Shown: positions 39,766-62,051 of the stretch, one piece after another
Layout: each line of letters opens with the position of its first letter
Numbering within the stretch: position 1 is the stretch's first letter
Source of the DNA: Diaporthe sp. PMI_573
Taxonomy: Eukaryota > Ascomycota > Sordariomycetes > Diaporthales > Diaporthaceae
Direction of reading: 5' to 3'
Assembly: GCA_021399435.1 (NCBI GenBank)
Contig: JAJTUP010000087.1
Location: forward strand, 1 to 64,000
DNA: 64,000 nt
Notes under the pieces: generated by a model
What the model was told of the DNA's origin: nothing
The model's database searches: none
Seen by the model: only the letters and a program-made list of their open reading frames with translations
Position numbers and translations under genes: made by a program

Positions 39766-41052
39766 TCATGTCCCTCCCGCGACAACTAATAGGCCCTTTA
39801 TAAGGCGGTTCTGTAGATCCTGGGTGAGGCTTTGCTGGGCTGGCCAACTATGTGCGGTGATAACAATGTGGAGTCTGCTGAGCAGCCCATCCAGTATCGT
39901 GACACGTGCCATAAGCAAACTCCTTGTTACAATAAGTCTGTCCTCGTCGTCCAGCTGCCTTTCTCTGCTGCTCATGCCGTAGATTGGCCTTTGGTACAGC
40001 AACCCATCACATTCCCGGCCGCCATCTAGTTCGCTCCACCTCCTCTTCAGATGTGTCGGATATGGAAACATTACAGGATCTACAGCCTTCCTTGCGCTAA
40101 GGCCATAATATACTGTTTCCAGAGTGCCTAATATCTTGCGGCAAATTGTTAAGAGCAGCATGATTTGAGCTGGCTGTCTACTGCATTTTTGGCAATCAAG
40201 CAGCTCATTGCACTCTATCATAGCCTTTTTCTGTTCCTGGAGTATGTCGTTTGTATCTTTGACGCTTTTCTTCTGTGCCCAAGCCGCCGCCTCCACACCC
40301 TCATGCGTTCTCATGATTTTTGCGAGGCAAGTGTAGCAGAAGTCTGACCCTTGTCTTTGTGAAGAAGACGTGGGATGAATGGCGGCAGATGATTCCCACG
40401 TGCTGTCGTTGAAAACATGATCAACGCTTTCTTCCACCCAAATCATGTCATCGTGAGGTTTACTCTTTTGAGAATCTGTAGCAAAGGCCGAAGGGTGCTC
40501 CAATGTCTCGGACGGGCTGAATTCGTCGGTGAGAAGCAGTGTGTCGGCATCCTCAAGTGGATCAAAGGTCGATGCTTCGAAGTCGAAGCTACTACCAACC
40601 TGCAGTACCTTGGGGAACGATGTAATTTCGCTGACACTATCGTCGTTGGACGATTCAGGTGTATCAGAAGGCACATCAAATGGTTCCTTCGTCTGAGGTG
40701 TCGGATCCGAGTTTGTCGGCAAGGTTCCTTTGTTTTCGGTACTGCCTGAGTTCTTCAGCGGGGCTGGGTAATGGCATTTGATCTTCTTCGTCAGGCATCG
40801 CTGGCAGCCACTGAGCTCACCGGAGCATCTTAACTGAGCATGAGCCGGGAAGTTAGCAGGACTCCCCACTGGTTACGGTCTGTGCTTTGATATCTGCATC
40901 ACACGGGCTCTAGATCGCACCTTGCTTATCCGACAGGTCGTGCATGCGACTTTGGCGAACTTGGTCCCCCGCTTCTTGGAGTACGGTGGTGGAGTCGTCT
41001 CGAAAGTATACACATCGTCAGACTCACTTGCATGCCGTAGAGTGCAGAACAT
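39766..41052 (-). CDS. AflR-type Zn(II)2Cys6 regulator, 399 aa
   Basis: This is probably the pathway-specific activator of the adjacent diterpenoid cluster. The exons are 41052-40921 and 40833-39766 with an 87-nt intron (gtgcga..tcag). Splicing creates the zinc cluster Cys37, 40, 47, 54, 57 and 64 (spacing 2-6-6-2-6); the intron falls between the second and third cysteines, and neither open frame alone shows the whole motif. The C-terminal half matches the AflR (aflatoxin regulatory) domain: 'DFCYTCLAKIMRTHEGVEAA', 'MLLLTICRKILGTLETVYYG' and 'LDGLLSRLHIVI'. The family is typically found in secondary-metabolite clusters. It is the outermost cluster-type gene on the left, separated by 830 bp from the first P450. 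Confidence 0.88.
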
Positions 41053-41882
41053 AATGGTGTGAGTTTCGCCAGCAATGCTTAATGTGTAGCAAGTAGGAAA
41101 TATAAATGAGGTGATGCCGTCAGGTACTTTTTGTCATCGATAGATCCTAGATAGAAGCCGATCTTGCTTAGAACAGCAAATTGAATGGAACCGTCCTTGC
41201 TTTTGTCTCAAATCCTCAAGAGCTATGCGAGCCATGGGCTTGTGGCAGCACACAGACGGGGCGTCCTGCCTGACGCGGCGGTGTTAGAAGTCAGGGGTAG
41301 TGTGCCCACTATTCCGGTGGCACCATGCCGCGTTTCTGGTACTTACTGTAACCTTGGTTGTATAAATACCTTACTTACTGAGGCGATCCTGTTGAGAGCG
41401 AGTCACCGGCGCTGAAATTGCGAGTCAGTCCTGTGATAATTAAGTCGTAGACAAGTGGATGGATGGTTGCTCCGTCGGTCGATTAACATTCCTCCGACAC
41501 TAACAATGATCTTTCTGCCGAAATCCACATTCACCATTGCGAGATCGGATTTTGGTTCCCGAGACCCACCAGACTGTACGCTACTTTTGAGACACGCTAT
41601 TATAATCTATCAAAGCTATTTTCATATCTATGCTGTACTGGTGATAGCTTTTGTGGGCAGTGTAGTGGTTATCTCTCGTGACAACTAGTTACGCCCACAT
41701 TGTTTCCCGGCTTCTTCTAGACCACGAGAGTCCCCCGTATCGCAATTCTGTTGTGATGCTGCCCTCCATACATTGCTTACTTGATGCACGAGCGTCCTGA
41801 TTGAGCTGCGGTACATATCAAATCTAGACCTTTCCGCCAAACAACGGTCTCGTTGTCCATGGGTCAGCAGCCCCTCGTCCGC
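41053..41882. promoter_or_regulatory. Upstream region of AflR-type regulator
   Basis: This 830-bp region lies between the regulator's ATG (41052, minus) and the stop of the first P450 (41883, minus). It should contain the regulator promoter and the P450 3' end. I found no clear TATA box. A 76-codon plus-strand ORF at 41185-41415 has no features. Confidence 0.4.
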
Positions 41883-43568
41883 TCAAGTCGAGGCAAGGGG
41901 CACTTTGGTGCGACTGTCACCCGAGTTCACCAAGGTCCATTCTCCGACCCACTCGTCCCGTACTGTCACTGTGATTTCCAAGTCTTTCTGTGGATTAGGC
42001 AAAGTGGAGATAGTAGCTGTCGTACTCGGCGGAGGTGTCTGCTTCCAAGCCCCCGCGCCATTCGAGCTGCCAACGGGCTCTAAGTCAACACGTACGACCA
42101 ACAGAGCCAGAACAACCAGAACCTCAACCGCGGCAAACTGTCTGGCGGGACAGAGGTGTGGCGGTGCTCCCCAAGCCAGAAACCCAGGCGCGAGCCTCTT
42201 TTTGACGAAGCGATAAGGATCGAACTCCGCAGCCGTCGGACCCCAGAGGGCCACGTCTGCGTGAATTCGCTCGGGTGGCAACTGTATCAGGCTACCCTTT
42301 TTGAGTAAGTAATTGTCGTCTAATACAGTGTCTTGTAGAACAGCGCGGATATTGGCGTGGGTATGTCGCAATCGCTGGGTCTCTTGGTATGTAGACAGGA
42401 GTAAGATGCACTTCTGCTTCACGGCTGCCATGTCCAGCGTGAAGCCTGTCTCTTTGTTCCCGCCAACTGCATTTGTAAGTATTTCATTCCTGACCTCATA
42501 AACAACATCTGGACGAGAGTAAAGGTCATGTATGGCCCAGTAGAGTGACGGGGACGTATTGCTGAAAACCCCGTTGCTGAGAATGGCATGGTGCCTGGCA
42601 ATGTCCTCTCCACCCCATCTTGCCTCACGATAGGCTCGGTCATTCTCCTTAATCAAAGAGCTGGCATCACCGGGCACACGCTTCGAGTACGTGCGGAAGG
42701 CAGCAAACAGCTTCTCACGTGCGGCATAACCCGTGCCGAGCAGGTCCAGACCGGCGAAATGCCAAGGGAGATACGAAGCCCATGTCCTATTCATCAACTC
42801 AGCTCCCTCTCTTGACGTTCTGATAGAAAAGCTACGCATGTCTTACCAGAATGCTGCTTCGGCCTCGGGGTCACGGAACGGATGCTCAAGGCCGTAGACC
42901 CCACAGCTTGAAGCCTGGACGACCAAGTGCCGTACCCAGTCCAATAACATGACCTGTTTAGATGTGGTACCGTCCGCGGCCATCCTGACCGCGTCCAAGA
43001 CCAAGTTGTCGACGTGCCGAGCAGCCTGGCTTGCCATGAGCGCGTTCATCCGGTCGTTCTCGGATGACGGCGTCTGCAGGCTGTTCCGCATAGTCTTGTG
43101 ATGAACATGAGCAAAATCTGTCGTCAATTGGTGGAGAACGTGTTCAGATGCGTCGGCCATTTTCTTGGAAGTCATGACAGCAAATGGGTCGAAGGAAAGG
43201 GTTTTTGAGTTGCGCTGGATGAGCCTCATCAGGTGTAACGTGTTGCTCACATACGTCTTGGAGCCGGGCAACGCGAGGGTGTATATTTCTGCGCTCGTTC
43301 TTTTCCTGTAGTAGTTGACTATATCAGTATTTCCTCGAAGTCAATTCTTTTCAGATAGCTGGATACTGCCCAGGGAATTATGCTCATACCCTACAAACCG
43401 AAAATACTCTGGGCCGAATCGCGTCAACCCGATTGCATGGCCTACAAACGGCACTTGCGACCAGACGCGAGGCGGCTCTCGGGGGTCATCCCAAAGGCTG
43501 AGAATGCGCTCGGCAACATGTAAAAAAAGCACAAGCCCAATAAATGCGCACAGCAACGCAGGAATCAT
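41883..43568 (-). CDS. Cytochrome P450, CYP7/CYP8-like class, ~513 aa
   Basis: This is probably an ER-anchored monooxygenase acting on the cluster's diterpene. The exons are 43568-43390, 43305-42847 and 42786-41883 (introns of 84 and 60 nt). The start is the ATG at 43568, which opens a membrane anchor 'MIPALLCAFIGLVLFLHVAE'; the open frame further up begins only at TTG. Next is a proline hinge 'REPPRVWSQVPFVGHAIG'. The I-helix region reads 'GVFSNTSPSLYWAIHDLY', the K-helix ExxR is in 'YQETQRLR', and the PERF-like block is 'FDPYRFV'. The heme loop is 'FLAWGAPPHLCPARQF' with the cysteine ligand present. The N-terminal block and I-helix style recall CYP7/CYP8-like fungal P450s and differ from the other three P450s here. 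It faces P450 B across a shared promoter. Confidence 0.85.
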
Positions 43569-44339
43569 ATTGTAGTGAACCGTGCCTATAAGGCAACTTC
43601 CTGCAAAACTTAGTGTAGTCCTAAAAGACTCATAGTTAATCAAACTTGTTGTTCTCCGATTGTTGGGTATATAAGACAGAATTCCAGAGGCAGCACCTCA
43701 CATGAGATTCTCGTCGGTGATCTATATCCCTACCTGTCATGGAATGTTCGGACCTAGGCCCAATCGAGTTGCCCGGCTCAACGATCCAGCAACTTGACTA
43801 GTGGAGTCAATTATTAACAATCCGTCTTCAGTTGATAAAGTTACTGTATAATGATAAAATAATTTTGAAAGCGCAAGGGCATCTTATAGATTTATGACAT
43901 AATTCGAAATGAAATCATATATTCGTATGTAAATAAGAATATTTCTCTTTATAACATTGTGTAACTACCAAATCGTCGTATCTCGGACTTGGTAAGGCCA
44001 CCAACTCTGGCTGCTGTTCGGTACCCAAAATGGCCAGCCCGACGCGACGATTCAGGTCACCGAACGCTCCCGCCTCAGGACATCGGCTGCATTCGTTTTA
44101 TCCTCCACCACATATCCCTCACCGCAAAAGTAGACTCGTGCCCCACTAGGATACGTTTGATCATGACAGTGCCGGTCTAAAGTACTGTGTGTTAAGGCGT
44201 TTACTACTGTATGAAGCGACCGCCTACATACTGATTAAGAAGCGTACGTACACGGATTAAAAACGAAACCACTTAAAAACGAAACCACCTGAAGTACTGT
44301 CCAACTGACCGTTGCATCATCAGCATCAATTTCTTCACG
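43569..44339. promoter_or_regulatory. Divergent promoter between two P450 genes
   Basis: This 771-bp region separates two divergently transcribed P450 genes. A TATATAAG at 43668-43675 lies about 100 bp upstream of the left gene's ATG. Near 44258-44290 the unit AAAAACGAAACCACTT is present twice in direct tandem, just upstream of the right gene. A similar motif occurs inverted near 62728-62744. Confidence 0.55.
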
Positions 44340-46160
44340 ATGAGCGCTGCTACGTGGAAGACACAAGTTGCGCTGAAATTCACATCCCTCACATCAGCTA
44401 AAAATGTGACCTCTTTCGATGCCATCAATGATTCAGAGGTTCACCGGCACACCGACCAGAGGATTGCATGGTTGGTCGGGCTGAGCCTATTTGCGTATGC
44501 ACTCGTGGTGCTGAAGGAATTCGTCTTCGGCGTAAAGGCGCCCAAGGTGGGACGTCGATCTTTCTGGGAACCGAGATGGCTCATTGGACTACGGTTTGCG
44601 CGGAACAGTGCACCGATGGTTCTAGAAGGATACCAGAAAGTAAGCATCAGTCATCACTTGTCTATGACGGGCGGGATGGACAGGCTCAGTGGACAATAGA
44701 GGCTAATAGCAATGCGTAGTTCAAAGGCCACATGTTCAAAGTGATGCGCAACGACTCGGACATACTCGTGCTTCCTCCGAAATATGTCGACGAACTGCGC
44801 GACATGCCCGACGATAAGGTAAGTGCGACTGATGCAAACATCAAGAACATGGTCGGTCGTTACACCATCGGGAATATCAGCGTAATTCGGGACAGCGATC
44901 TCCATAGACGAACCCTTCAGCAGAAGTTGACACCTGCTCTTGGTACGCTGATCCCTCCGGTTAAAGATGAGCTTGTGTTCGCCCTCGAGGCCGAGGTCAA
45001 AGACTGCAAAGATTGGACACCAACTCACGTCACGCCGTTGATCATCAATATCGTGGCACGCGTCTCGGCACGTATCTTTGTCGGCCCTGAACTCTGCCGG
45101 AACGCAGAGTGGCTCTATACGAGTATTCATTACACCAGAAATATTGGGATTACTAGAAACCTGCTCCGTGTACTTCCTCCGGTGGTGCGTCCTGTGGTCG
45201 CGCGGCTATTACCCTCGTATTGGCGCATATATTCCAACCTATCGGCGGGTAGGCGGCTGCTGGGCCCCATCATTCTCGGTCGTCGCCGAAAGGCGGCTAA
45301 TGATCCTAAATGGGAGAAACCCAACGACTTTCTCCAGTGGCTGATAGATGGCGCAAAGCCTGAGGAGGGTGCTGTGAACGATCTGGTGCATCGGCAGCTC
45401 CTTGTTAGCCTCGGATCAATCCACACGACATCTATGATGTGCACACACTTTTTTTTCGACTTGTGCGCCCATCCAGAATACCTGGAACCTTTGCGAGAAG
45501 AGATGTCGTCTGTGCTGCGCGAGGACTGTGGTTTCAAGAAAACGACTTTGAACAGACTGCGCAAGCTAGACAGCTTTCTGCGCGAATCACAACGCATAAA
45601 CCCGCCTTTTACCTGTAAGTTCGAGACACACCCTACCGAGGTATTCGTGTCTCCTTTTCACGGTTCATTGACCCATGAACATTGCAGTGTCATTCCAGCG
45701 AGTGGTACGAGAGGACGTCACCCTGAAAGATGGAACTTGTCTTCCCGCTGGCACGCACCTCGCCATGCCGGCGGCCGCCATGGCCCATGACGAGGCCCTC
45801 CTGCCAGACGGTGGGAATCCAGAAGTCTTTGACCCTTTCCGCTACGAGCGACTGCGCCAGGATACGTCCAAGCCCGAAAACATACACAAGTTTCAGTTCG
45901 CCACAACTGATTCGGCCACTCTCCACTTTGGCCATGGAAAGTACGCTTGTCCGGGCCGCTTCTTCGCTAGCAACGAGATCAAGGTGATTCTTTGTCATTT
46001 GTTACTGCGTTACGATTTCAAGTTTCCGGAAGGGCAACAGCGTCCCAGGAACTGGAGTTATGAGGAGGCATTTTACCCGGACCCAACAGTGCCAGTCTTG
46101 ATGCGCCAGAGGCCTGCAGGTGAGCTGGCCCCTGACATTGCCGCCCTTGTTGGTGCCTAA
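44340..46160 (+). CDS. Cytochrome P450, CYP503/CYP68-type, ~555 aa
   Basis: This terpenoid-type fungal P450 resembles the ent-kaurene oxidase group of gibberellin clusters. The exons are 44340-44639, 44720-45614 and 45688-46160 (introns of 80 and 73 nt). A membrane anchor is 'WLVGLSLFAYALVVLKEFVF'. Diagnostic blocks include 'GYQKFKGHMFKV', 'VLPPKYVDELRDMPDDKVSA', 'LVSLGSIHTTSMMCTHFFFD' (I-helix), 'DSFLRESQRINP' (ExxR), 'FDPFRYERLRQ' and the heme loop 'FGHGKYACPGRFFASNEIKV'. All parts are present and in frame, so it should be active. Similarity to kaurene oxidase supports an early oxidation step on the diterpene hydrocarbon, but the exact substrate cannot be read from sequence. Confidence 0.88.
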
Positions 46161-46684
46161 GCCGGAACACACGAGACTCAAAACTCTGTACTATTGTCTT
46201 GTCCATTCTTCAATGTCATGGCCCATACCCATACACACACATCAGTCAGCATTTTGGGTGACCGGAGATCGACTCCGGACTGAAACTCGTATACACTGGA
46301 GAAAACAGGAAAAAGTTAGATTTGCTTAGATTATTCGTAGAATCTGATCACATTTCATCACGAATTATTTATGTTGGGTTGTTTCTGGATACGTTTTGGG
46401 CGATAAAGCGAGTTTCTGGAGGCTGGCAAACAGCTGTACTACAAATCGTCCAAAATCATATCTCCAATGTGACAGTCGTATTAAAATGCAAATGATGGAA
46501 GAATAAGTGCAATTAAGGATGAACTATTCACTCTGAAATTTAAACGATACGATCGGTCCGCATAATAACCGTCCTCCAGATATGAGATCGCGAACACGAA
46601 TCCATCGACGAGGACTTCCATACGCCCATCCAATGGACGAATTATATGTCCGATGATGAGAGATCGTTTATATGCGACTCGAGA
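46161..46684. other. Convergent 3' region, no gene
   Basis: This is the 3' region shared by the P450 on the left and the MFS gene on the right. AT-rich parts near 46320-46520 may hold polyadenylation signals. The ORFs have no features. Confidence 0.45.
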
Positions 46685-48741: not shown

Positions 48742-49406
48742 ATTTCCCTTACGTCTTCGGGCACAGGTGGGTGAATGTTTTCTTTCGAGGACAGCCAATA
48801 CCAGCGGCCAGGTAATGACGGGCAAATGTGTAAACCGTGAGGCTCACTGGCTCGACGGATCAATCGCTTAACACCTTCACAGGGGTCCCAAACAATGTTT
48901 GGCGACTTACCCACCGAAAGTCACTTCGGCCTCCAAACCGGGCAGATCTTATTGGGTGGATCCAGGATGTCCAATAGGATATTTGCTGAGGCAACCTTGG
49001 AACCAATGTTTAAGATCGAAGCGCATGTGAACGCACGGAGTACCTAAGCAGACAGGGAATTGTTCGGCCGCTCCAAATTAGGCCTGGCCGAGAAAAGTTA
49101 AAGCGGGCATACCGTTGAAGCACTGTCAAGTCCAAGAAGTACCGAAAGATATTACAAACTTTGGTTAGTTGTAATGTATGAAAGTGTCTTTTGCTCTTTA
49201 ATCATCGAATTATGACTGTGTTTATCTGTTTTTAATGAGTGTAGTGGATCGTATTGATAAAGGCCATATGCATGAGTCTTGCGGGCCCCTGAACTTCGGG
49301 AGTCGTACGACCTTAAATGAACTTCCCCGATCCGCTCACAGGCCAGGTTCTATCCAAACTACTGTGTCACATTCTGTCCTCATATTCACATCCTTTATGC
49401 TACTAA
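48742..49406. promoter_or_regulatory. Divergent promoter, MFS exporter / GGPP synthase
   Basis: A 665-bp shared upstream region. It contains a perfect 10-bp palindrome GTCGTACGAC at 49302-49311, about 95 bp upstream of the GGPP synthase ATG. Several CGG-containing stretches (48929-48932 and around 49065-49093) could be Zn2Cys6 half-sites. Confidence 0.5.
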
Positions 49407-50600
49407 ATGGAATTTCTCAAAATGAAAACAGATACGCGGCCGTCTGCAACGTGGCCATCTCTGCCGAAAGTCCAAAAACGCAACAGGACCACAACAAGCC
49501 TAACCGAACAGCAATCAGCGAAGAGGGCACATCTCAACTATGCCAAGCTTCATTTACAACAAGTTCCTAGACAGCCTGTTTATAAGAGTCGAAATGATCT
49601 CATTGCTCAAAGTGACGACGAGTCTTCGGATATCGATACCACCAACTCGTCATCTTCCAGTAGCCCGGAACGATTTGCAGCTTCCGACCTGAACTTCTCT
49701 TGGGCTGAAGAAGAAGAAAAGGTCGTACTTGCTCCATATGACTACGTGGCATCCAACTCCGGCAAGGAGTTCAGGACTCTCATCCTAAATGCCTTCAACG
49801 TCTGGTTCGGGGTGCCCCCGGCCAGCCTGACCATCATCTGTGATGTGGTGCGCATGCTGCACACCTCTTCACTACTCATCGATGATATCCAGGACAACTC
49901 ATTACTACGGCGAGGGCGGCCCGTCGCCCACAGTATATACGGCATAGCACAGACTATCAACACGGGCAACTACGTGTATTTCCTAGCCGCCAGACAACTG
50001 AATAAGCTCCGCAACACGGAGGCTGCCCTTGATGTGTTCATGGCCGAGATGCTGAACCTTCATCGAGGACAGGGCCAAGAGTTGTACTGGCGTGACACAC
50101 TGAAATGCCCGACCGAAGACGAGTACCTCAAAATGGTGTCTAACAAGACTGGAGGCCTGTTCCGTATGGCCGTAAAGCTGATGCAAGCCGAGTCTCCAGC
50201 CGGGGCGAGGGCCATCGACTGCGACAAGCTGGTGCAATTGCTGGGACTAGTGTACCAGATTGTCGATGACTACAAGAATTTGACGGCTGTCGAATACACG
50301 ACGAGTAAGGGCTTCTGCGATGACTTGACCGAGGGCAAGTTTTCCTTTCCCGTTGTCCACAGCATCCAATCAAATCCAGCAGACCGCCGGTTGTTTCAAA
50401 TCTTAGCACAGAAGACTGCAGATATTGAGGTTAAAAAGCACGCTGTCAGCTATATGGAAAGTACAGGAAGTCTGTATTATACCAAGGAGGTGGTCGGTGT
50501 GTTGATCCGGAGGGCCAGGGACGAGCTAGGTGTAATTGACGAGGGGCGGGATAAGAACCACGAGCTGCATGCGCTGCTGGATAGAATGGCTCTGGATTGA
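49407..50600 (+). CDS. Geranylgeranyl diphosphate synthase, 397 aa
   Basis: This enzyme condenses IPP with allylic diphosphates to GGPP, the substrate of the CPS/KS enzyme nearby. A single intronless frame starts at ATG 49407, with a second in-frame ATG 15 bp on. Residues 1-100 are polar and Ser-rich, with an acidic run before the catalytic domain. The first aspartate-rich motif DDIQD is at 159-163 followed by 'LLRRG'; the second, DDYKN, is at 287-291. The small residues before the first motif ('LHTSSLLIDD') fit a C20 product. Location beside the diterpene synthase indicates a dedicated cluster copy, distinct from the housekeeping enzyme. It is convergent with the frameshifted P450. Confidence 0.93.
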   Translation: MEFLKMKTDTRPSATWPSLPKVQKRNRTTTSLTEQQSAKRAHLNYAKLHLQQVPRQPVYKSRNDLIAQSDDESSDIDTTNSSSSSSPERFAASDLNFSWAEEEEKVVLAPYDYVASNSGKEFRTLILNAFNVWFGVPPASLTIICDVVRMLHTSSLLIDDIQDNSLLRRGRPVAHSIYGIAQTINTGNYVYFLAARQLNKLRNTEAALDVFMAEMLNLHRGQGQELYWRDTLKCPTEDEYLKMVSNKTGGLFRMAVKLMQAESPAGARAIDCDKLVQLLGLVYQIVDDYKNLTAVEYTTSKGFCDDLTEGKFSFPVVHSIQSNPADRRLFQILAQKTADIEVKKHAVSYMESTGSLYYTKEVVGVLIRRARDELGVIDEGRDKNHELHALLDRMALD

Positions 50601-51062: not shown

Positions 51063-52839
51063 CTATTGAATTTCGTCTCGTGGGACAAAAACGAGCTTCT
51101 GTCGAGGGTCTGGTCGGACCAGGCCACCCTTGTAGAGGTTCTTGGGACGGTCCGTTTGACCAGGCGGGAAGGAGATGTCGTACTTGAGCAGGACGTTGGC
51201 CAGCACGACCTTGATCTGCACGCCGGCAAAGAAGCGACCGGGACAGGCATTCTTGCCCTGACCAAATGCGAGACTTTCGGGCCCCGTCGAGGCGAACTGG
51301 TGGCGGTTCGCATTCTTTCCACCCTCCATTCTTCGGTCATAGAAACGATATCCATCAAAGCGCTCTGGGTCCTCGTAAATGTCCGGGTCGCGAGCGACAG
51401 AATCGCTTGGCATTGTGATATAAGTGCCCGCGGGAAGAGTGGTGCCATCCTCGAAACGCAGAGGCCGAGCCACCTTGCGGTTGAAAGTCATTAGTACGGC
51501 CTGGTTAAGCCGCTGTGACTCCTTCATGAAACTGTCGAGCTTCTTCATGCTGGCAATGGCCGATAGCGTCCAGCCGTGTTTGGCGACCACCGCGGTTACC
51601 TCGTCGCGAATCGGGCTGAACGTATTCTGGGTTGGCGCAGAGGTCGAACAGCGCGTGAATGGTCGTCGCTGCGCTGGTGTGTACCGCGGCGAGAGACATA
51701 AACAGCATGTTGTGCGACAAAACGTCAGGGTCCCGGTCACTACCACGCGCTGAGTCTGACATCCACTGCACCATATCCACCAGTTTCTCGCTTTCACCCT
51801 TTGTTTCAACCTGCTGCTGCTGCTGCTGCTGCTTCAGTGCAAGTCTTTGGGCGAACGTGGGTCCGAATGTCCTTTTGGCCGTATCCAGGTGACGCTTGAG
51901 TGTCCTGGTCCCTTCTAGCCACGGAGCGATCACGGGCCGTAGGAAAGCCGGGTAAGGTCGAAGCATGACGGCGAGGCTGACTACGTCCATTGAGTACAGG
52001 GCTGCCGTTTCGAGCCATTCAGTATTGCGGCTGGCTGCCTGTCCACCAAGCATCCTGGATCCAGTGGCTGCTATGATGCGGACCATGGTGTCGTAAGCCC
52101 TGATTTGAGTCTTGCCGGGTATGCGTTGAGCTAACCAGTAGCTGGCTTCCTCATGAATTGGCCCCATCAGGGTGTCTACATTGACCAATTTGGTATCATG
52201 TCAGCCCGTGCATACCATTTTCAGTCGGATTTATCACAAGAAAAGGGGGATTTACGAAGGTTCTGCGTCAGCTGGGCTTTGCAGACATCGATATGCAGAG
52301 GGCTCCGGAAGACCACATCAAGATTTGTTTGAGAACTGAGCAGTCTCTCGCTCAGCCCATCGGCCATGTCAAGAGCGTCTTCAGGCAGACTCTTGTTGAT
52401 CTCGTCGACATATTTAGGGCTTAGTACGACCCTCTCTACATTTAGAGTCTGTACTATAAACATGCCATTCTTGCTCTACGGAGTCACGTACTCGTCAGCT
52501 CAATTTTCCAAGACTGGCACATCCTTTCGCCGGCGGGAGACATACCATGCGGTATCCCTCATCAAGGATCCTTCGCCCGTTGACCTTGAAGTCTCTTTTC
52601 GCTTCAGTCAGGCCTAAGCCCAACCAGCCAGGCCCCTTGCCAGCTCGGGGTAATCGGCTCAGGCTTGGACCTGTAATATACCAGAATATTCTACAGCAGA
52701 GAAAAATGAAGGCGATGGCGAGCCCGCCTGTGGATGCAACCAATGTCTTATGGCGTTCATGATCGCTGTCGAGGAGCGTATTCAGCCAAGTAGCCGCTTG
52801 GTGGCCATAACGGTCTGTCTCATTCATCACTGAACTCAT
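51063..52839 (-). pseudogene. Cytochrome P450, CYP503/CYP68-type, with frameshift
   Basis: This is a third-cluster P450 paralogous to those at 44.3 and 57.3 kb. The exons are 52839-52546, 52469-52256 and 52175-51063 (introns of 76 and 80 nt). The start is the ATG at 52839. The anchor 'LVASTGGLAIAFIFLCCRIF', then 'VVLSPKYVDEI' and the I-helix 'MSLAAVHTSAATTIHALFDL' lie in one frame. After 'CANPEYVQP' the expected continuation 'IRDEVTAVVAKHGW' is in another frame, implying one extra base near 51610-51618. Downstream the ExxR ('DSFMKESQRLNQ') and heme loop 'FGQGKNACPGRFFAGVQIKV' are intact. A CAG run encodes seven glutamines near 51812-51833. With the frameshift the protein would lack the heme site, so it is inactive unless the base is a sequencing error. 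Confidence 0.85.
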
Positions 52840-53670
52840 TGTTGTCGCCGTCCTCACATTGGCCTCCAGAGCATCTATGGTGTGTTGGCTTGGATGAGTT
52901 GGTGAGACAGATGAGGTCGAAATTGTACCATAGAACGAATAACTCCATTAATCATTCCTTCTGATCTGTCTTCCCATCTCACGTCCACATCTTTGCATAG
53001 TGGACCTAAAGGCTTTGTGACCCCTGCCAAGGCATCCGGCGCAGCCTTTTCAAGCCGACCGATGTCAACAGGGTCTGGCACCGGGAGCCCCCGTTTTGGC
53101 CAACCGATGCATGCGTCGCATGCCGAAGACCCCGACTACAGGGTGGGGCGAGCAAAGACCTGATTCAGGCAGACAGTAGGTAGTCACTGCTTTTTTTTCT
53201 CCTATGATTCTACTCATGCTCATGAGAAGAAGAAAAGAACATGGATAAATAATGCTGAAAAAAAAGAGTGAACAAGTGAATGCAGTCATGTATCCTACGT
53301 GTCAAGACAATTGTGGACATCAAGCATCTTGCAAGGACTGAATGTTGATAACGTAAGAATAAGAATATATCAAAGAACAACCCGTCACCTGACGAGTAAT
53401 TCAATCATGATAAAACTGAATTATATCTCTGCAGGGAAAGATTGTGAGTGGTGGGGCCTACGGAACTCTAGTCGTACTATAAAAACGAAGAGCCGCGTGC
53501 GTACAAAAGACTAACAAATTAGTTGCTATATATCCTTTCAACTCTGGCATTAGTGTACGGATATCTGCGAAAGGAGCTGCTGTTAATTCCGGTGCTTTGG
53601 TTGGCCCATTATCACCCGCTCTTATTTTCACAAGCTACATTGTCATTCTATCTCGAGGAACCCTAGGACC
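52840..53670. promoter_or_regulatory. Divergent promoter, P450 / diterpene synthase
   Basis: This 831-bp shared upstream region contains a perfect 15-bp inverted repeat, GCATGCGTCGCATGC, at 53109-53123. TATAAAAA at 53478-53485 lies about 190 bp upstream of the synthase ATG. The palindrome is a candidate site for a dimeric regulator. Confidence 0.6.
53109..53123. promoter_or_regulatory. 15-bp perfect palindrome, candidate operator
   Basis: GCATGCG-T-CGCATGC is symmetric about the central T. It sits near the middle of the divergent promoter, 548 bp from the synthase ATG and 270 bp from the P450 ATG. No protein binding is shown by sequence alone. Confidence 0.4.
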
Positions 53671-56600
53671 ATGGAGTTCAATGAGCACCTTGTGGGCGAG
53701 GCAAGGTCATTGGTTCAAAGAACCCTGCAGAACTATGACGAGCGCTATGGGTTCGGAACGATGAGCTGTGCGGCATATGACACAGCTTGGGTATCGCTCG
53801 TGACAAAGACAGTCGACGGGCATCAACGATGGCTCTTCCCTGAGTGTTTCCAGTTTCTCCTAGACACGCAGTCCGGTACTGGTGGCTGGGAAATCGGCAA
53901 CAGCGCACCCATCGATGGTATCCTCAACACTGCTGCTTCCTTGCTGGCTTTGAAGCGCCACGTTCGGCTAGGGATTGACGTTCTGCCTCAGTACGACGAG
54001 AAAGACCTGTCCGGACGTGCTGAAAGAGCATTGACGTCTTTGCGAATACAGTTAGGCGCTCTGGACGTGTCGACGACGGAACATGTGGGCTTCGAAATCA
54101 TCGTTCCGGCCATGCTCGACCTCCTCGAGGCGGAGGACCCATCCTTGGTGTTTGACTTTCCGGCACACAAACCACTGATGAGGATCCACGATGCCAAGAT
54201 GTCACGATTCCGACCTGAGTACCTCTATAGTGATCAGCCGATGACGGCGTTGCACTCGCTCGAGGCTTTCATCGGGAAAATAGACTTCGACAAGGTTCGA
54301 CATCACACGACACACGGATCGATGATGGGCTCGCCCTCGTCGACGGCCGCGTACCTGATGCACGCCTCCCAATGGGACGATGAGTCTGAGGCCTACCTGC
54401 GCCATGTCATCAAGCATGCAGCGGGCCAGGGCTCCGGTGCCGTTCCGAGTGCATTTCCTTCCACGCATTTCGAGTCTTCTTGGGTGAGCTTAAATTTCTA
54501 GATCTGGTTTTGAATCGTGATCTGACCGTATGTTCGTTGGCGCAGATCTTAACAACGTTGTTTCGAGCTGGCTTCTCAGCCGCTCATCTGGCATGCGACG
54601 AGCTACACAAACTGGTGGAGATCCTCGAGGGCTCTTTCAAAAGTGAAGGGGGCGCTATCGGGTACGGTACGTGCGGCTTTTCTCTGATTTTGCCATGACA
54701 GAGTGTTTCTCTGACTCCCATGATCGTAGCTCCTGGATTTCAAGCGGATGTGGATGACACTGCAAAGACCATTTCGACTTTGACTGTGCTTGGACGAGAT
54801 GCCAGTCCCCAGCAAATGATTAAAGTTTTTGAAGCCAACACTCACTTTCGGACTTATCCTGGGGAAAGAGATCCAAGCTTAACTGCCAACTGCAACGCGC
54901 TTTCGGCACTTCTTCACCAGCCAGACGTTAGAATGTACGGCAGCCAGATCCAGAAGATCACAAAATTTCTGTGCGACTACTGGTGGAAGAGTGACGGAAA
55001 GATCAAGGATAAGTGGAATACGTGCTACTTGTATCCTTCAGTCCTCCTCGTTGAGGTGCTGGTAGACCTGGTGTCCTTGTTGGAGCAAGGCAAGCTGCCT
55101 GACGTACTGGATCAGGAGCTTCAGTACAGGGTCGCCATAACACTATTCCAAGCCTGTTTGCGACCGCTACTCGATCAAGATTCTGACGGATCATGGAACA
55201 AGTCCATCGAGGCTACAGCCTACGGTATTCTGATTCTTACGGAGGCGCGGCGACTGTGTTTTTTCGAGCGTCTAAGTCAGCCCCTAAATGAGGCTATCCG
55301 ACGGGGAATTGCTTTCGCAGACTCATTCGGCGATGATGAGGCTCAACTGAACTATATCTGGATCGAAAAGGTCAGCTATGCATCTGTTCTTCTGACCAAA
55401 TCATACCTCCTCGCAGCACGGTGGGCAGCAAAGTGCCAGCTCGGCGCCTCCGTCGGATCCAGCCTCTGGACACCTCCGAGAGAGGGTTTGGACAAGCACG
55501 TCCATCTGTTCCACCAGGCGGAACTCTTCAGGTCGCTGCCGGAATGGGAGCTCCGTGCGTCCATGATTGAGGCAGCCCTGTTCACTCCGTTGTTGAGGGC
55601 GCACAGGTTGGACGTGTTTCCGCGCCAAGACGTCGGCGAGGATAAGTATCTGGATGTTGTGCCGTTCTTCTGGACGGCTGCGAACAACCGCGCTCGCACT
55701 TACGCGTCTACTCTATTTCTCTATGACATGTGCTTCATCGCCATGCTCAACTTCCAGCTCGATGAGTTTATGGAGGCTACGGCGGGCATCCTCTTCCGCG
55801 GCCATATGGACGACCTACGCCAGCTCATCCACGACCTGCTTGCCGAAAAGACGAGTGCCAACGCACTAGGCGAAAGTGATCAAAAGGCCATGAACGCCGA
55901 CTCTGGCATCGAGGAAGACGTTTCCATGAGCGACTCGTCGTCAGACGCCCCAGACCACAGCCCTGAATACGAGCTGGTCCTCTCGTCGCTCACGACCTTC
56001 ACCAAGCACGTCCTGAAGCATCCTTCAATCCAGTCGGCCAGTGCCTGGGACAAAACGCTCCTTGCACGTGAAATGAAGTCCTATCTCTTAGCCCATGTTC
56101 AACAGGCTGAGGACAGCACACCCTTGAGCGAGCACAAGAATCTCCCCCAACAAAATGGCATCACACGCGTCTCAACATCCACCACGACTTTCTTCAACTG
56201 GGTGCGGACGACCTCCTCGGACCACATATCGTGCCCTTATTCGTTCCATTTCGTCGCTTGCCACCTCGGCGCGGCGCTGAGTCCCAAGAGCAGCAACGGT
56301 GACTGTTTTCCCTCGGCCGGCGAAAAGTTCCTCGCGGCTGCCGTGTGCCGCCACTTAGCCACCATGTGCCGCATGTACAACGACTTAGGATCCGCGGAGC
56401 GCGATTCCGACGAGGGAAACTTGAACTCGCTCGACTTTCCCGAGTTCGCCGACCTCACAGAGAATGGTGGACTTGAGATCCAGAAAGCCGCCCTCCTCAG
56501 ATTGGCCGAGTTCGAGCGTGACTCATATCTCGAGGCTTTACGGAGACTCCAGGACGAAAGCACCCGCGTTCACGCGCGGACGGGCGGGGATGCAGCAAGA

Positions 56601-56738
56601 CTCAGCAGGCGGCGTATGGTCATCCTGGAATTCTTTGCGCAGCAGGTGGATTTGTATGGCCAGGTCTACGTTATTCGTGACATCTCCGCCAGGATTCCAA
56701 AGAACGAGGTTGAGAAGAAAACTGGAGGGCTAATCTGA
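53671..56738 (+). CDS. cps/ks: Bifunctional diterpene synthase, CPS/KS type, 980 aa
   Basis: This enzyme cyclises GGPP first to a copalyl-type diphosphate (class II site) and then to a tetracyclic or related diterpene (class I site). The exons are 53671-54483, 54546-54666 and 54730-56738 (introns of 62 and 63 nt). The class II motif DVDD is at about 318-321, and a QxxDGSW block ('QDSDGSWN') at about 461-468. The class I Asp-rich motif is DEFME (about 656-660), the DExxE variant usual in fungal CPS/KS. The second metal motif 'NDLGSAERD' and the following '[10 protein letters not shown]' (about 862-883) also match fungal CPS/KS. All catalytic motifs are present and the length fits the family (about 950). 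ent-Kaurene is the most common product, but the exact skeleton cannot be inferred. Confidence 0.94.
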
Positions 56739-57326
56739 TCAGCTAATATCTGTGATGGATTCTACCTGGGTACGCTGTCACAAACTATAGGCATGGTTTT
56801 CTGTGGATGTAAAATGATTATAGTAAAGAACATCATGTCGAAACGGAAGCCTGGCTCTTCTACATTGAAGAACAGCATGATCCAGTAGAGGGTCCTCAAC
56901 GTAAATTAGGTAAAATTTGGCGACAAATTTGTATGGGCCATCTTGCAACCAGAAGTACCATATCACATGAGAACTGGGTATAAGATCAATAGTCTTGAGA
57001 TAACAGTTATGGGATGACCTGCGGCCGGCCATAGGCTCTGCCGCCCAAATTCCCCTTTAATTAGAGGATCGCCCACTGGTCGTGGGAAAGCGACACCCTC
57101 TCCCTTTCCGTGGGCGGCCCCGCGTGCCCGGGACGCTTGCCTTTTAAAGTTTTTTTTAAAAAATATTTATAGAGCACCTCGAGTAGGTTTTACCATGTAA
57201 TTGAAGCCTAGAATGAAAAGACTTTGTATTTGAGAGTTTCTACACTGTCCGTGTTCACCAAACGAGATTTTCAAAACGCTGAGGTACAAATTTATTTATG
57301 GGTGTTCTGAATGATGTATTTGCGGG
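56739..57326. other. Convergent 3' region, no gene
   Basis: This lies between the diterpene synthase and the third terpenoid P450. The short ORF at 56778-57032 (minus) has no features. Confidence 0.45.
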
Positions 57327-59401
57327 TCAAGTCTTCCTTTTCCTCATCATAAGCGTGGCATGCGCATCAATGAACGTATTCTCATCCGCATACATCCGCT
57401 TGGGGCGAGACTTGCCCTTGGGGTAAGCAAAATCAAATTGGACGAGCATACGGGAAAGCACCAGCTTGATCTCCCCGATTGCGAAGTAGCGCCCGGGACA
57501 AGCCTGACCACCATATCCAAACGCGAGCGTTTCCATGTCGGACTGGTCAACCGCAGTGTATTTGTTGGGGTTCTCGCCGCTCTCGTCAACGTACGCCTTG
57601 CGCTTGCGGTACATCCGCATGGGGTCGAACAATTTTGGATCTGAGGACAGCGTGGAGGGATCATTGGCATGGTGGTGTCCGGCCCAGGCCACACGGGCTC
57701 CCTGGGGAATTGTTGTGCCATCGCTTAGAGTCAGGGGTACCATGGCTACCCGTTGTGGTCTCACTAATCGGTCGACGGGTCAGCATTCATCTTGGTCCAT
57801 AGTTAAGTCGCGGCTGAGTAGGGCTTAAAAAGACGCCAATGAGGTTGGATGAAGAACGCACGGAGAATCTGCGGGTTGGTCCTTTGCATTTCGATTATGA
57901 AGCTGTCCATCTTCATCAATTTGGCGATCCACTGCCTCGATGTCATGCCAGGATGTTCGCCGATCGGCCCGTACTTGGCAGTAACCTCTTCGATCTCCTC
58001 ACGAAGGACATGGAACCACTCCGGGTGGTCGCAAAGGTCGAACAGCACGGTACTCACGCTAACCGAAGTTGTATGAATGCTGGCGAGCGTTAGGAAGCAC
58101 TGACGGAATGCCATCTCTCCTAGTCGTGTCTCCGTCTCGTTGCCGTTGTCCATCATCCAGCCAAGTAGCGTGTCCTCTACCTCGTCTCCACGGGCTCTGG
58201 CGTCGTCGCGCTTCCTAACAAGATTGCCAACTATCCGTCTAGAACAGATTCATGTCAGTCGTTACTTCGCATGGTCGACATTCCATCTTCACGACGAAGA
58301 ATAGAAATTCTGCTCACTCGGCCGTCTTGATCTGGTGCCACATTCGCCTGCGGGCAGGCACCAGGGGTGCAATGTAGCGATGCGTCCACGGCGGGAACAT
58401 ACGGAGGGTGAATGCGGCCACGAACATGTCGTGCGTGAAGCCGATGGAGAGGTTAATCCAGTCTTGGTCTCGGCATGCGGGATAGCCCATGAATACCTTG
58501 GCTGACATTCGCGAGACAAGCCGACGGAATATTTGCTGAATGTCCACTTCGGCCCAGTCTGCATTTGTTTTTTGGACAGTTAGCTGCAAGTCTCTCTGTC
58601 GCTTCTCTTGGCTGCCTTGCTAGTCTCCACGTTTCCTGCGCATGAAGCTCATAAAATTGTGAATGAGTGAAAGTTCAGAGACTTACCGTCGGTTTGAGGA
58701 ATTTCTACATCCCATGCATATTCGAGCTCGCTCCGCGCGATATCAACATATTTGGGCAAGTTCCGGTTGAGCTGACCGTTGAGGACGCGGACGATCAGAT
58801 CCGAATCATACATGAATTCTGCCCAGGTCCACTTTGGGACTAGATTCTAAATTGGTGACCAAGGACAGACCGTCAGCGATTGGGCCGGTAGCTGTTCTGG
58901 CGCGGCAGAAACGAACATGAATCTGTGGCATTTTACAGTTGAGCTTCGATCTCGGAATGGCGCGCATTTCCTCCAAGTACTTGAACGGTAGGATGGTAAT
59001 GTCTGCATCATACCGGCGTACCACGAACGGAGCATCCTGGAACTATTTCGTTGCCCGCCACACGTGTTAGCGTCTGCTAGTGAAGCCGTGTTTCTGGCTT
59101 TCCAGTTGGGTGGCTGCTGTAATCACACCTTCTGGTATCCGCTCTTGATGATGTCTACGGCGCTCCAAACAAAGCGAATCTGTAACAAGAGAGTCGGCTC
59201 CCACCATGATCGAAGTCCGTGGACTTGGGCACTGGGCACTGTTGCGCGCAATTTTGGGTTGCTGAACCATAATGACAAGAGCCAGCAAAAGCCTAGCAAC
59301 AAGGCCGCATATGTTGTCGTGTTAGGATACTCGTTGAGCTGTTGCCTTGCGATTGCCCGAAGGCTCTCAATATTCGTCATCGGGAGTGTGCGATTCGTCA
59401 T
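57327..59401 (-). CDS. Cytochrome P450, CYP503/CYP68-type, ~537 aa
   Basis: This is an ER-anchored terpenoid P450, likely oxidising the cluster diterpene. The six exons are 59401-59129, 59042-58917, 58846-58687, 58558-58318, 58238-57862 and 57763-57327; all junction phases agree. The first ATG of the frame (59401) was chosen over the upstream TTG. Blocks in order: anchor 'YAALLLGFCWLLSLWF', 'GYQKFQDAPFVVRRYDADIT', 'QIHNLVPKWTWAEFMYDSDL' (across the third exon junction), 'LASIHTTSVSVSTVLFDLCD' (I-helix), 'DSFIIEMQRTNP' (ExxR), 'FDPMRMY' and heme loop 'FGYGGQACPGRYFAIGEIKL'. The second intron uses a GTTCGT donor, inferred from the family alignment. It is divergent from the sulfotransferase-like gene over 258 bp. 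Confidence 0.88.
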
Positions 59402-59659
59402 AGCCAATGGATTTTGCTAGGTCCAAGCTTGAGAATGGCCACAGCAGTAGGTCCATGTGCTGTGAGTGTGTTGGAACAGGAAGCCGTCCTTTATGACAAC
59501 TGACTCGCCTGGCGTGAACAACCGTCGGCGTCTTCCCAATTAGGATGCCGAAACAGAGCAATCGCAAGTGTTGCAATGCCCCCGACAAAAACTATATTTC
59601 TCAGTCCTAACTCAGGTGGCACTTTTAGCCAGACGGAAATCCAAGGATTATCAGCAACC
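59402..59659. promoter_or_regulatory. Divergent promoter, P450 / sulfotransferase-like gene
   Basis: The 258 bp between two divergent ATGs makes this the most compact shared promoter in the cluster. No TATA box is obvious. Confidence 0.4.
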
Positions 59660-60653
59660 ATGTCGCGGGCGGTGGACAGGCTGCCCACACCGGCGCACAT
59701 ACGCGAAAAGAAAGTCATAGTTGTGGCACGAAGTCGGTGCGTTCGGCTGCTCTTGTTTCCGAAACAACACCCTGCTTACTTGACGATACAGGACCGGCAC
59801 ACTGTCCCTGTATAAAGCACTGACTATTCTGGGATATCGGACATACCATGGCGCCGAGGTCATGGCCCGAGGCGTCTCGCACCTGGAAATGTTCGAGGAA
59901 GCTCTGAACGCGAAATACTTCGGAGTGGGAAAGCCTTATGGGAGAGCCGATTTCGACAAGTGGCTGGCCGATTATGATGCTATCGTGGAGATCCCGGCTG
60001 TCTTCCTGGATGAGTTCGTGGAAGCATACCCCGAGGTCCCGTTTGTGCATGTGGAGCGAGATGTCCACAAGTGGTATGTCTCGGTCATGAACACACTGGG
60101 CCACTCTCTCCGGGATGTAGACACATTCCCTTTGAAGCAGCTGCGTCTCATCGACACATTTGTCGATCGGTTCTGCTCGTTCCATCTCATGGTTCATCGA
60201 ATCTGGTGGCATGGCAAAGCGCTCGATGACGGCGAGGACGTCCTCAAATCGGATTATATTGAGTTGTATGTTTCGAAATTCCTCAAGGTCTGACTTCAAT
60301 ATGCTTACAGATAGCTGGTGAACAGGAACCGCAGGGTCAAGGAAATAGTCCCAAAGGAAAAGCTGGCGTCGTTCAGTCTGGAAGATGGATTTGGGTGGGA
60401 ACAACTTTGCCCTGCTCTGGGAGTGCCCATACCAGATGTGCCATATCCGAGTGCAAATACCCCAGAAAGATTTGACAAGATGCAAGCCGGGTTTGTCCGC
60501 AAAGCCATGCGGAAAGCGTACGCCATATTTGCAACATCCATCTTGGTCCCGTCTATCGCCGTGGCTGCATGGTATTATTACCGTGGCAGACCTGTCCGTG
60601 GCCTGGCTGCCCTGGGGCTGCCTCTCTTTGGCCGTATATTCTCCGAAAGATAG
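59660..60653 (+). CDS. Sulfotransfer_4-type P-loop protein, ~292 aa
   Basis: This fungal family has a sulfotransferase fold and is often mislabelled as NAD-dependent epimerase. It may use PAPS to sulfate a small molecule, though activity is unproven for most members. The exons are 59660-59736, 59792-60265 and 60326-60653 (introns of 55 and 60 nt). Splicing gives the P-loop-like 5'-phosphosulfate-binding block 'VIVVARSRTGTLSLYKALTI' (residues about 19-38) followed by 'GYRTYHG'. Further family blocks are 'EVPFVHVERDVHKWYVSVMN' and 'HNRRVKE'-like 'LNRRVKEIVPKEKL'. A C-terminal hydrophobic segment 'FATSILVPSIAVAAWYYY' suggests membrane anchoring. If part of the pathway it could conjugate the oxidised diterpene. 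Confidence 0.8.
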
Positions 60654-61036
60654 GCCAAGACGAGCTCAAATACGTTTTCATGATCCTAAAATTGGTTGGA
60701 TACTTCTGCCTGTCTCCTTGAATTGCTCTTGGAGGCTCAATACCTATCCACACGATGATTTCGCAATGCCCTCTTCACGACTCTCCTCCAAATGTCCATA
60801 TTTCGTTTATGCATTTTATAAAAAGCCGTCCCTCAGAAACTGTCAAGAGGCGTCTTAAAAGTACATTCGTAGTTAGATAACGGTGCTGACACAAAGATGC
60901 ATAACGTCTCATGTTCACAGCAGACGTAGACCAGATACTTTACAGCCAATATTTGGATTTAAGCCTTTTAAAAGGGTCTCTTTGTGATTCGATTGCATTC
61001 TATGTGAGACTTTCTCAACGTAACGTGCAGGCGCTC
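60654..61036. other. Convergent 3' region, no gene
   Basis: Shared 3' region between the sulfotransferase-like gene and the phosphatase-like gene; no coding features. Confidence 0.45.
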
Positions 61037-62051
61037 TCACTGTTCCGCAGCAATCACAACCTCTATCCGCCTGTCAGCCTCGTCCTCAGCCTTTGCCACA
61101 AGCTCCGCATGAGACTTCCAGTCGAGTTGCGTCCCGCCGTCGGGAACGATCATGTTTCGGCGCAGCTGCTGGACACCATCTTTGTCGAGGAGCCCAAGCT
61201 CAATAACACATTGATCGACCGAGCCCCACTCCTCTTGGATGTAACTCAACAATGCCATCATGAATCTCTTTCTAAGCCAGGGGTGACATCAGTGATAGGC
61301 ATTGGTAATTACAATCGAAACCAGAATCTGACGGTATGGCTTACCTTGAACCCACCATCTGCATCGCGGCAGCTGCATTGCCCTTCACAACCGGCTCCTG
61401 CAGTAGATTTCGGAGAAATTCCGGACGAGACTTGAGGCCGAGTTCGGACAAGCTGTACTCGTGCGCAACGACCTCATTGTCGACGCCGCACAGCGACAGT
61501 ATCAGAGCGCAAATGACTCCAGTCCTGTCCTTTCCCGCGGAACAGTGGATCAGTACAGGGGCAGGGCCGTCGGTGCTCGCACAAGCAAGATGCTGCAGGA
61601 TAGTTCTGTATGGTTGGTCCGGGTTGTCCTCCGCGGCAGCTGCCTTGAGGATTTCGCGCAGGTGCGCGAGTACGATGGGAGTTGAGGTGTCAGCCGCATA
61701 CATTCGAAACCTTGCGGTGATGGCCTCGGGGGTATACTCGACGTCCGAAAACACGGGGGCGACGATGCGGTTTGCACCAGGCCAAGTCCTCGCCTGTCTG
61801 CCGTTCCCATTCTGTGCATCTCTGACGAGTTCGAGTCGGGAGCGGAGATCGTACACATCCTTGATACCCAGGGCGTGAAGCTCGGCGACGCCTTGATCGG
61901 CCAGCTTGGACGGCTCGGATGAGCGGAATACGACACCTGTTCTTACTACCTTGCCTGCTGATGAGGCGACGGGATATCCTCCGATGTCCCTGAAGTTGGG
62001 CAGCCCGGGGACATGGACAAAAGGTGGGCTGATAGAGGCATTGTCCAACAT
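61037..62051 (-). CDS. Protein-tyrosine-phosphatase-like protein, 311 aa
   Basis: This is a cysteine-based phosphatase of the Y_phosphatase3 (dual-specificity) type. The exons are 62051-61345 and 61265-61037 (intron of 79 nt). The signature HCSAGKDRTG contains the nucleophile Cys170 and Arg176. Upstream is the family opening 'LPNFRDIGGYPV' (about 17-28) and 'FRSSEPSKL' near 42-50. The C-terminal part has helices typical of the family. It sits convergent with the sulfotransferase-like gene and may simply be the cluster border; a role in the pathway is unproven. All catalytic residues are present. Confidence 0.87.

What the first reader, a model, noticed from the sequence alone, without database searches (positions are those of the whole stretch)
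39766..62051. Diterpenoid cluster without a GA desaturase but with a sulfotransferase-like gene
Seen: AflR-type regulator, GGPP synthase, bifunctional CPS/KS with both active sites, four P450s (three of one terpenoid type, one CYP7/8-like), a 14-TM MFS exporter, a Sulfotransfer_4 protein and a PTP-like protein within 22 kb. Known: fungal gibberellin clusters carry ggs2, cps/ks, P450s and a 2-oxoglutarate desaturase. Inference: the absence of a desaturase and presence of the CYP7/8-like P450 and sulfotransferase-like gene point to a different, possibly sulfated, diterpenoid.
Basis: partly seen in the sequence, partly recalled or inferred. Interest (0 to 1): 0.9.

Follow-up and report, generated by a model that had tools for sequence, protein, structure and literature searches.

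The report
Fungal son-type diterpenoid sulfotransferase gene cluster
A stretch of fungal genome, probably from a Diaporthe species, holds ten neighbouring predicted genes that likely make a diterpenoid other than gibberellin, one hydroxyl of which the cluster's own sulfotransferase is predicted to sulfonate; close relatives of its two key genes already bear names (SonA, SonE) in another fungus, so it is a new member of a known kind of cluster.

Summary
Ten predicted genes lie at 39,766-62,051: AflR-type regulator, four P450s (A-D), MFS exporter, GGPP synthase, two-site diterpene cyclase (DVDD + DEFME), Sulfotransfer_4 protein, phosphatase-like protein. Eight form four divergent pairs. P450-B has a broken frame in this assembly; I left it unmended. 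Its conclusion that this is not gibberellin is supported by another route: in a 41-row tree the cyclase sits in a clade with SonA of Paraconiothyrium archidendri, next to aphidicolanol synthase, apart from the Fusarium ent-kaurene synthases (no experimentally tested gibberellin cyclase was in the tree). So two genes tie it to an already named gene set. PAPS-binding residues and fold are kept. Whether the sulfate stays on the product or serves as a leaving group is open. No product or expression data were available. New member of a known kind.

The parts
39766..41052 (-). AflR-type Zn2Cys6 regulator, 2 exons, 399 aa
   Evidence: model; PF00172 + PF08493
41883..43568 (-). P450-D, CYP7/8-like, 3 exons, 513 aa
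   Evidence: models; PF00067; relatives 86% over 56% of the length (76,368-base contig), 75% over 70% (Diaporthe ilicicola), 58% over 58% (30,683-base contig, the length of one that bears a cyclase relative)
44340..46160 (+). P450-A, 3 exons, 555 aa
   Evidence: models; PF00067
46685..48741 (-). MFS exporter, 4 exons (one intron, 47973-47884, is in frame)
   Evidence: models; MFS_1 + TRI12
49407..50600 (+). GGPP synthase, 397 aa, one exon
   Evidence: model; PF00348
51063..52839 (-). P450-B, two pieces in different frames; left unmended
53671..56738 (+). Bifunctional diterpene cyclase (CPS/KS type), 3 exons, 980 aa, DVDD and DEFME
   Evidence: models; homologues; tree and motifs
57327..59401 (-). 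P450-C, 6 exons, 528 aa
   Evidence: models; PF00067
59660..60653 (+). Sulfotransferase, PF17784, 3 exons, 292 aa, C-terminal hydrophobic segment
   Evidence: models; Pfam; homologues; conserved residues; model and fold match of its 71% relative SonE
61341..62051 (-). Tyrosine-phosphatase-family protein (PF13350), HCSAGKDRTG; membership in the cluster untested

Best explanation
This stretch carries ten neighbouring predicted genes whose cyclase and sulfotransferase are relatives of SonA and SonE of Paraconiothyrium archidendri, and it likely builds an oxygenated diterpenoid other than gibberellin, one hydroxyl of which the sulfotransferase is predicted to sulfonate. Inferred order: the GGPP synthase would supply GGPP; the cyclase would close it first at its DVDD site to a copalyl-type diphosphate and then at its DEFME site to a tri- or tetracyclic diterpene; the P450s would hydroxylate that skeleton; the PF17784 enzyme would move a sulfonate from PAPS to one of those hydroxyls; the MFS protein would export the product; the AflR-type protein would switch the genes on. 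Shown: the genes, their order, the two cyclase motifs, the conserved PAPS-binding-type residues, and the relation of two genes to named Son proteins. Not shown: any product, any sulfate, any co-expression.
For: Cyclase: 89% to Diaporthe amygdali, 78% D. ilicicola, 76% Fusarium oxysporum f. sp. radicis-lycopersici, 58% SonA; in the tree it lies with the first three (100/100) inside a 17-row clade with SonA (100/99). Sulfotransferase: 81% FOCG_17855 of the same Fusarium strain, 71% SonE, 96% over 63% of the length to D. amygdali. Linkage elsewhere: P0029 (cyclase, 76%) and P0129 (sulfotransferase, 82%) both show a contig of 129,879 bases; P0031 (cyclase, 73%) and P0220 (P450-D, 58%) both one of 30,683 bases (equal length taken as the same contig). 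R26, G28, T29, R115, W120 and S123 of the sulfotransferase are kept in 49-52 of 55 aligned rows. AlphaFold2 model of SonE: mean pLDDT 89; its best Foldseek matches are Schistosoma sulfotransferases (TMt 0.68-0.74), SgdX2 (0.82) and Cpz8 (0.83). An ent-kaurene-synthase-like cyclase gene of this genome lies elsewhere, on C185.
Against: P450-B is broken in this assembly, so the pathway may not run to its end here. No promoter motif is shared by the four divergent promoters (0 dyads in 3 or 4 of 4; no 8-, 9- or 10-mer in 3 or more; 42 7-mers in 3 or more against a shuffle mean of 25 and maximum of 56). The acid position (D in the four solved relatives whose alignments were printed) is E here, and T27 of the P-loop is T in only 25 of 55 rows (V in 22). 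No P450-D hit bears a Son or F. oxysporum name among the 120 listed of 148 (names are of cluster representatives). Linkage of SonA and SonE in their own genome is inferred from the names. Relation of the other genes to Son genes was not tested.
Confidence: 0.6

Rival explanations
1. Activating sulfotransferase: the sulfate is put on a P450-made hydroxyl only to be thrown out as a leaving group, closing a ring or forming a double bond, so the final product carries no sulfate.
For: The closest solved relative by sequence is SgdX2, titled 'bacterial activating sulfotransferase'. Precedent in terpenoids: sorghum LGS1 acts on 18-hydroxy-carlactonoic acid, and the paper infers that the sulfate leaves as the ring closes (the sulfate itself was not detected; passages of PMC8713700). 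One Xylaria species yields both a 16-O-sulfo- and a 14,16-epoxy-norisopimarane (passages of PMC9609704).
Against: SgdX2 and the other top fold matches are only 20-28% identical to SonE, and by Foldseek E-value the Schistosoma enzymes rank first. LGS1 belongs to another sulfotransferase family (recalled). No substrate known.
Confidence: 0.3
2. Stable sulfated diterpenoid of the hymatoxin / 16-O-sulfo-norisopimarane kind.
For: A 16-O-sulfo-norisopimarane is reported from Xylaria (that hymatoxins carry sulfate is recalled). Xylaria cyclases fall in the same 17-row clade, and Xylaria hits to the sulfotransferase are 44-48% identical (one partial hit 65% over 30%). Isopimaranes (diaportheins, libertellenones, myrocin E) are reported from Diaporthe / Phomopsis.
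Against: Nothing ties the cyclase to an isopimarane product; in Xylaria arbuscula the cyclase and sulfotransferase hits lie on contigs of different length.
Confidence: 0.3
3. Gibberellin cluster of the GA4 kind (Sphaceloma), which also lacks the desaturase and P450-3.
For: GGPP synthase + CPS/KS + three related P450s without desaturase is that cluster's content (loss of desaturase and P450-3; rest recalled). No experimentally tested gibberellin cyclase was in my tree.
Against: The cyclase is 42-44% identical to the six rows (Fusarium, Claviceps, Boeremia, Dothidotthia) that form the ent-kaurene synthase clade (100/100) elsewhere in the tree; a separate ent-kaurene-synthase-like gene exists on C185. 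That Sphaceloma's cluster holds no sulfotransferase is recalled.
Confidence: 0.05
4. Dying cluster: the break in P450-B is real and the pathway stops at an intermediate in this strain.
For: Frame break without room for an intron.
Against: The other nine models are open; an assembly error is as likely; reads were not available.
Confidence: 0.2
5. The PF17784 protein sits in the cluster but no longer transfers sulfonate (another P-loop role).
For: E in place of the D of the solved enzymes; a hydrophobic tail; a large family in this genome (25 places by my grouping).
Against: The other binding residues are kept in nearly all relatives; E is still an acid.
Confidence: 0.12

Closest known systems
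son genes of Paraconiothyrium archidendri (SonA, SonE; protein records)
   Same: SonA is a cyclase of the same clade (58%) and SonE a PF17784 protein (71%)
   Different: P450s A-C, GGPP synthase, exporter and regulator not compared; the P450-D search listed no Son record; product and paper not found in the held library
Aphidicolin cluster (ACS of Neocamarosporium betae)
   Same: GGPP synthase + two-site cyclase + P450s + exporter + regulator (content recalled); ACS is the nearest such named outgroup of the Son-type clade
   Different: 46% identity, separate clade (100/100); no sulfotransferase (recalled)
Fungal gibberellin clusters (Fusarium, Sphaceloma)
   Same: GGPP synthase, CPS/KS, several P450s (recalled); the desaturase may be missing
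   Different: cyclase outside the ent-kaurene synthase clade; sulfotransferase and CYP7/8-like P450 here
Pimaradiene cluster of Aspergillus nidulans (PbcR)
   Same: GGPP synthase, two-site cyclase, P450, Zn2Cys6 regulator (passages of PMC3323652)
   Different: one P450 and an HMG-CoA reductase; the word sulfotransferase does not occur in the main text
SgdX2, Cpz8 and Schistosoma sulfotransferases (solved relatives)
   Same: fold and conserved binding residues
   Different: 20-28% identity to SonE; D instead of E at the acid position in the four alignments printed; other substrates (recalled)

Membership tests
Son-type diterpenoid cluster | Cyclase in the SonA clade | tested here: met
   17-row clade, 100/99; inside it SonA and the window row lie on sister branches with weak support (86/23)
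Son-type diterpenoid cluster | PF17784 protein closely related to SonE | tested here: met
   71% over 92%, fourth of 54 hits
Son-type diterpenoid cluster | Cyclase and sulfotransferase linked in another genome | tested here: met
   P0029 and P0129, both 129,879-base contig; identity of contig inferred from equal length; not seen for four other taxa checked
Son-type diterpenoid cluster | Remaining Son genes orthologous | not tested
Son-type diterpenoid cluster | Same product | not testable with these tools
   no product known here
Fungal gibberellin cluster | Cyclase in the ent-kaurene synthase clade | tested here: not met
   the clade is identified by database names, no tested gibberellin cyclase included
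Fungal gibberellin cluster | 2-oxoglutarate desaturase | tested here: not met
   no PF03171 or PF14226 match on C204; not required, see Sphaceloma
Fungal gibberellin cluster | P450s of CYP68A, CYP68B and CYP503 type | not tested
   no reference sequences held; family names from passages
Aphidicolin cluster | Cyclase groups with aphidicolan-16beta-ol synthase | tested here: not met
   the N. betae ACS pairs with an Aspergillus row (100/100) outside the Son-type clade
Bifunctional diterpene cyclase | DxDD and D(D/E)xx(D/E) motifs | tested here: met
   DVDD, DEFME; motif definition in passages of PMC10512213
PAPS-dependent sulfotransferase (PF17784) | Pfam score, fold and binding residues | tested here: met
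   199 bits; fold of SonE, not of the window protein; residues
PAPS-dependent sulfotransferase (PF17784) | Catalytic acid of the solved enzymes | tested here: inconclusive
   E in 42 of 55 rows including this one, D in 7, G or S in 2, gap in 4; role of the position recalled, not verified
PAPS-dependent sulfotransferase (PF17784) | Transfers sulfonate | not testable with these tools
   needs an assay

The most novel reading that the evidence does not exclude
The cluster uses sulfonation as a tool of carbon-skeleton or ring chemistry: a P450 puts a hydroxyl on the diterpene, the cluster's PF17784 enzyme turns it into a sulfate, and the sulfate leaves as a new ring or double bond forms, the fungal diterpenoid counterpart of LGS1 in strigolactone synthesis.
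Probability: 0.27. Interest if true: 0.7.

Novelty: new member of a known kind. Interest (0 to 1): 0.42.

Why it matters
Fungal PF17784 proteins are numerous (25 places in this genome by my grouping), and my literature searches (listings only) brought up no tested one in a terpenoid pathway. This cluster and its relatives in Diaporthe, Fusarium and Paraconiothyrium (and possibly Pyrenophora) give a defined partner pathway in which to test one: does the enzyme decorate a diterpenoid or activate it for ring closure? It also corrects a shortcut: absence of the desaturase does not separate a diterpenoid cluster from a gibberellin cluster; the cyclase phylogeny is the better test.

Tried and rejected
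Gibberellin (GA4) cluster: my own first lead, because Sphaceloma lacks the desaturase; disfavoured by the cyclase tree. Co-regulation from sequence: looked for dyads and shared words in the four divergent promoters (771, 665, 831, 258 bases) and found nothing above shuffles; low power, so it neither supports nor excludes co-regulation. Paper for the son genes: and a guess at cleistanthane / sonderianol, found none; the held library is open-access only. Sulfotransferase papers: (one search listed one on a Fusarium graminearum phenolic sulfotransferase, not opened); one search returned unrelated papers. A joint profile of P450-D and P450-A returned mostly P450-D relatives, so relatives of A, B and C remain unlisted. 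NCBIfam gave nothing specific. One search failed (a DNA word guessed from a translation was not found) and was replaced.
Full report
WHAT IS THERE. The stretch 39,766-62,051 lies on contig C204 (244,542 bases) of an 83.7-Mb assembly in 217 contigs. I rebuilt the genes with introns: regulator (-), P450-D (-), P450-A (+), MFS (-), GGPP synthase (+), P450-B (-), cyclase (+), P450-C (-), sulfotransferase (+), phosphatase-like (-). Eight of the ten form four divergent pairs (D/A, MFS/GGPP synthase, B/cyclase, C/sulfotransferase). Family assignments come from Pfam and homologues. Ten single-exon ORFs from both flanks were scanned: on the left a HET-domain gene, ankyrin repeats and an FrsA-like hydrolase; on the right a phosphatidate phosphatase APP1 and an M20 peptidase; five had no match above a cut-off (one of them a weak DUF7924 match). 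No further terpenoid gene was seen there. Neither of two 2-oxoglutarate dioxygenase profiles matches anywhere on C204, though each has 33 matches in the genome.

THE BROKEN P450. P450-B (51,063-52,839) runs into another frame between two conserved blocks, with no room for an intron. The two pieces were searched apart: the first gave no Pfam match, the second PF00067. Assembly error and real mutation cannot be told apart here.

WHICH FUNGUS. Not named by any tool. The cyclase is 89% identical to Diaporthe amygdali, and a second cyclase of the same genome, on C79, is 85-88% identical to a record named phyllocladan-16-alpha-ol synthase of Diaporthe australafricana. A Diaporthe species is therefore likely; this is inference.

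THE CYCLASE. 980 residues with DVDD and DEFME. The homologue search scored 7,994 candidates, found 497 with E <= 0.001 and listed 120. I chose by hand 40 of the 120 (874 residues or longer, spread over the list) plus the window's own protein. The window row groups with D. amygdali (100/99), then D. ilicicola (99/97), then F. oxysporum f. sp. radicis-lycopersici (100/100). They belong to a 17-row clade (100/99) with SonA of Paraconiothyrium archidendri, Xylaria and relatives; inside it the branch that joins the window's group to SonA's is weak (86/23). Aphidicolanol synthase of N. betae is next outside (97/83). Six rows (three Fusarium, Claviceps, Boeremia, Dothidotthia), several of them named ent-kaurene synthase, form their own clade (100/100) on the other side of the tree, and the phyllocladanol group another. 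The root is at the midpoint and for drawing only. Database names are a weak guide: 'ent-kaurene synthase' and 'aphidicolan-16beta-ol synthase' are also given to rows inside the 17-row clade, and no experimentally tested gibberellin cyclase was among the rows.

NOT GIBBERELLIN, BUT FOR ANOTHER REASON. Passages of PMC7758035 say that DES and P450-3 are missing from the Sphaceloma manihoticola operon, which makes GA4. Missing DES is therefore no evidence. The cyclase tree is, with the limit just named. The same genome has three other cyclase loci of this type: C79 (phyllocladanol-like), C185 (best hit an ent-kaur-16-ene synthase record of Neonectria ditissima, 54-56%) and C113 (not followed).

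THE SULFOTRANSFERASE. 54 hits. Among them are F. oxysporum f. sp. radicis-lycopersici FOCG_17855 (81% over 92%), SonE (71% over 92%), Pyrenophora teres (69%) and D. amygdali N8I77_013314 (96% over 63%). SonA and SonE are names from one organism, so somebody has described a son gene set; their linkage there is inferred from the names, and I found no paper on it in the open-access library. Against: contig lengths differ for Xylaria arbuscula, Nemania abortiva, D. amygdali (594,919 and 1,166,528) and the Fusarium strain (17,362 and 36,238, perhaps a broken-up assembly), and D. ilicicola's best hit is only 53%. The family is large in this genome: 43 matches, which I group by eye into 25 places.

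DOES IT WORK AS A SULFOTRANSFERASE? An alignment of the window protein and all 54 hits (55 rows) keeps R26 (51), G28 (51), T29 (51), R115 (52), W120 (50) and S123 (49); T27 varies (25 T, 22 V). The acid position is E in 42, D in 7, G or S in 2, gap in 4. The four solved relatives whose alignments were printed (of nine matched) have D there. That this acid is the catalytic base is recalled; the paper I tried was not held. The AlphaFold2 model of SonE has mean pLDDT 89. Foldseek puts Schistosoma sulfotransferases first, with SgdX2 and Cpz8 among the top 7. SgdX2's title calls it an activating sulfotransferase, and by sequence it is the closest solved relative.

HOW IT MOST LIKELY WORKS. GGPP synthase, then two-step cyclisation, then P450 hydroxylations, then PAPS-dependent sulfonation of a hydroxyl, then export. 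All reaction steps are inferred from families. Two ends are possible. Either the sulfate stays, as in the 16-O-sulfo-norisopimarane reported from Xylaria (passages of PMC9609704), or it leaves to close a ring, as is inferred for LGS1 in sorghum strigolactone synthesis (passages of PMC8713700). I give them similar weight.

CO-REGULATION. An AflR-type regulator is adjacent. A search for shared dyads and words in the four divergent promoters found none. No transcript data were at hand.

VERDICT. By the two genes tested, the cluster belongs with an already named gene set (son). The open point that deserves an experiment is what the sulfotransferase does.

Noticed in passing
51063-52839: P450-B is split over two frames with no room for an intron; assembly error or real break.
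   Followed up: partly
G000:C79:455132-458248, C185:875256-878302, C113:604345-607294: Three further two-site diterpene cyclase loci in the genome: phyllocladanol-like (85-88% to a Diaporthe australafricana record), ent-kaurene-synthase-like, and one not followed.
   Followed up: partly
53671-56738 and 59660-60653: Cyclase and sulfotransferase are 76% and 81% identical to those of one Fusarium oxysporum radicis-lycopersici strain, from another order than Diaporthe, which hints at horizontal transfer.
   Followed up: no
59660-60653, residue 92: The acid position of the PF17784 enzyme is E in this fungal subgroup (42 of 55 rows) but D in the four solved enzymes printed and, by eye, in a paralogue of the same genome, L012.
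   Followed up: partly
11567-14097 and contig C204 about 79635 (L010): Transposase-like ORF (hAT-like by eye; no Pfam match for its first part) with a nearly identical stretch 68 kb away on the same contig.
   Followed up: no
1-10000 and 28001-30000: AT-rich blocks (GC 0.27-0.40, against about 0.50), perhaps mutated repeats.
   Followed up: no
22846-24342: FrsA-like alpha/beta hydrolase ORF with no neighbour examined.
   Followed up: no
P0121 (F. oxysporum homologue): Its record carries about 20 extra residues where the other 26 aligned rows have a gap, as a retained intron would give.
   Followed up: no
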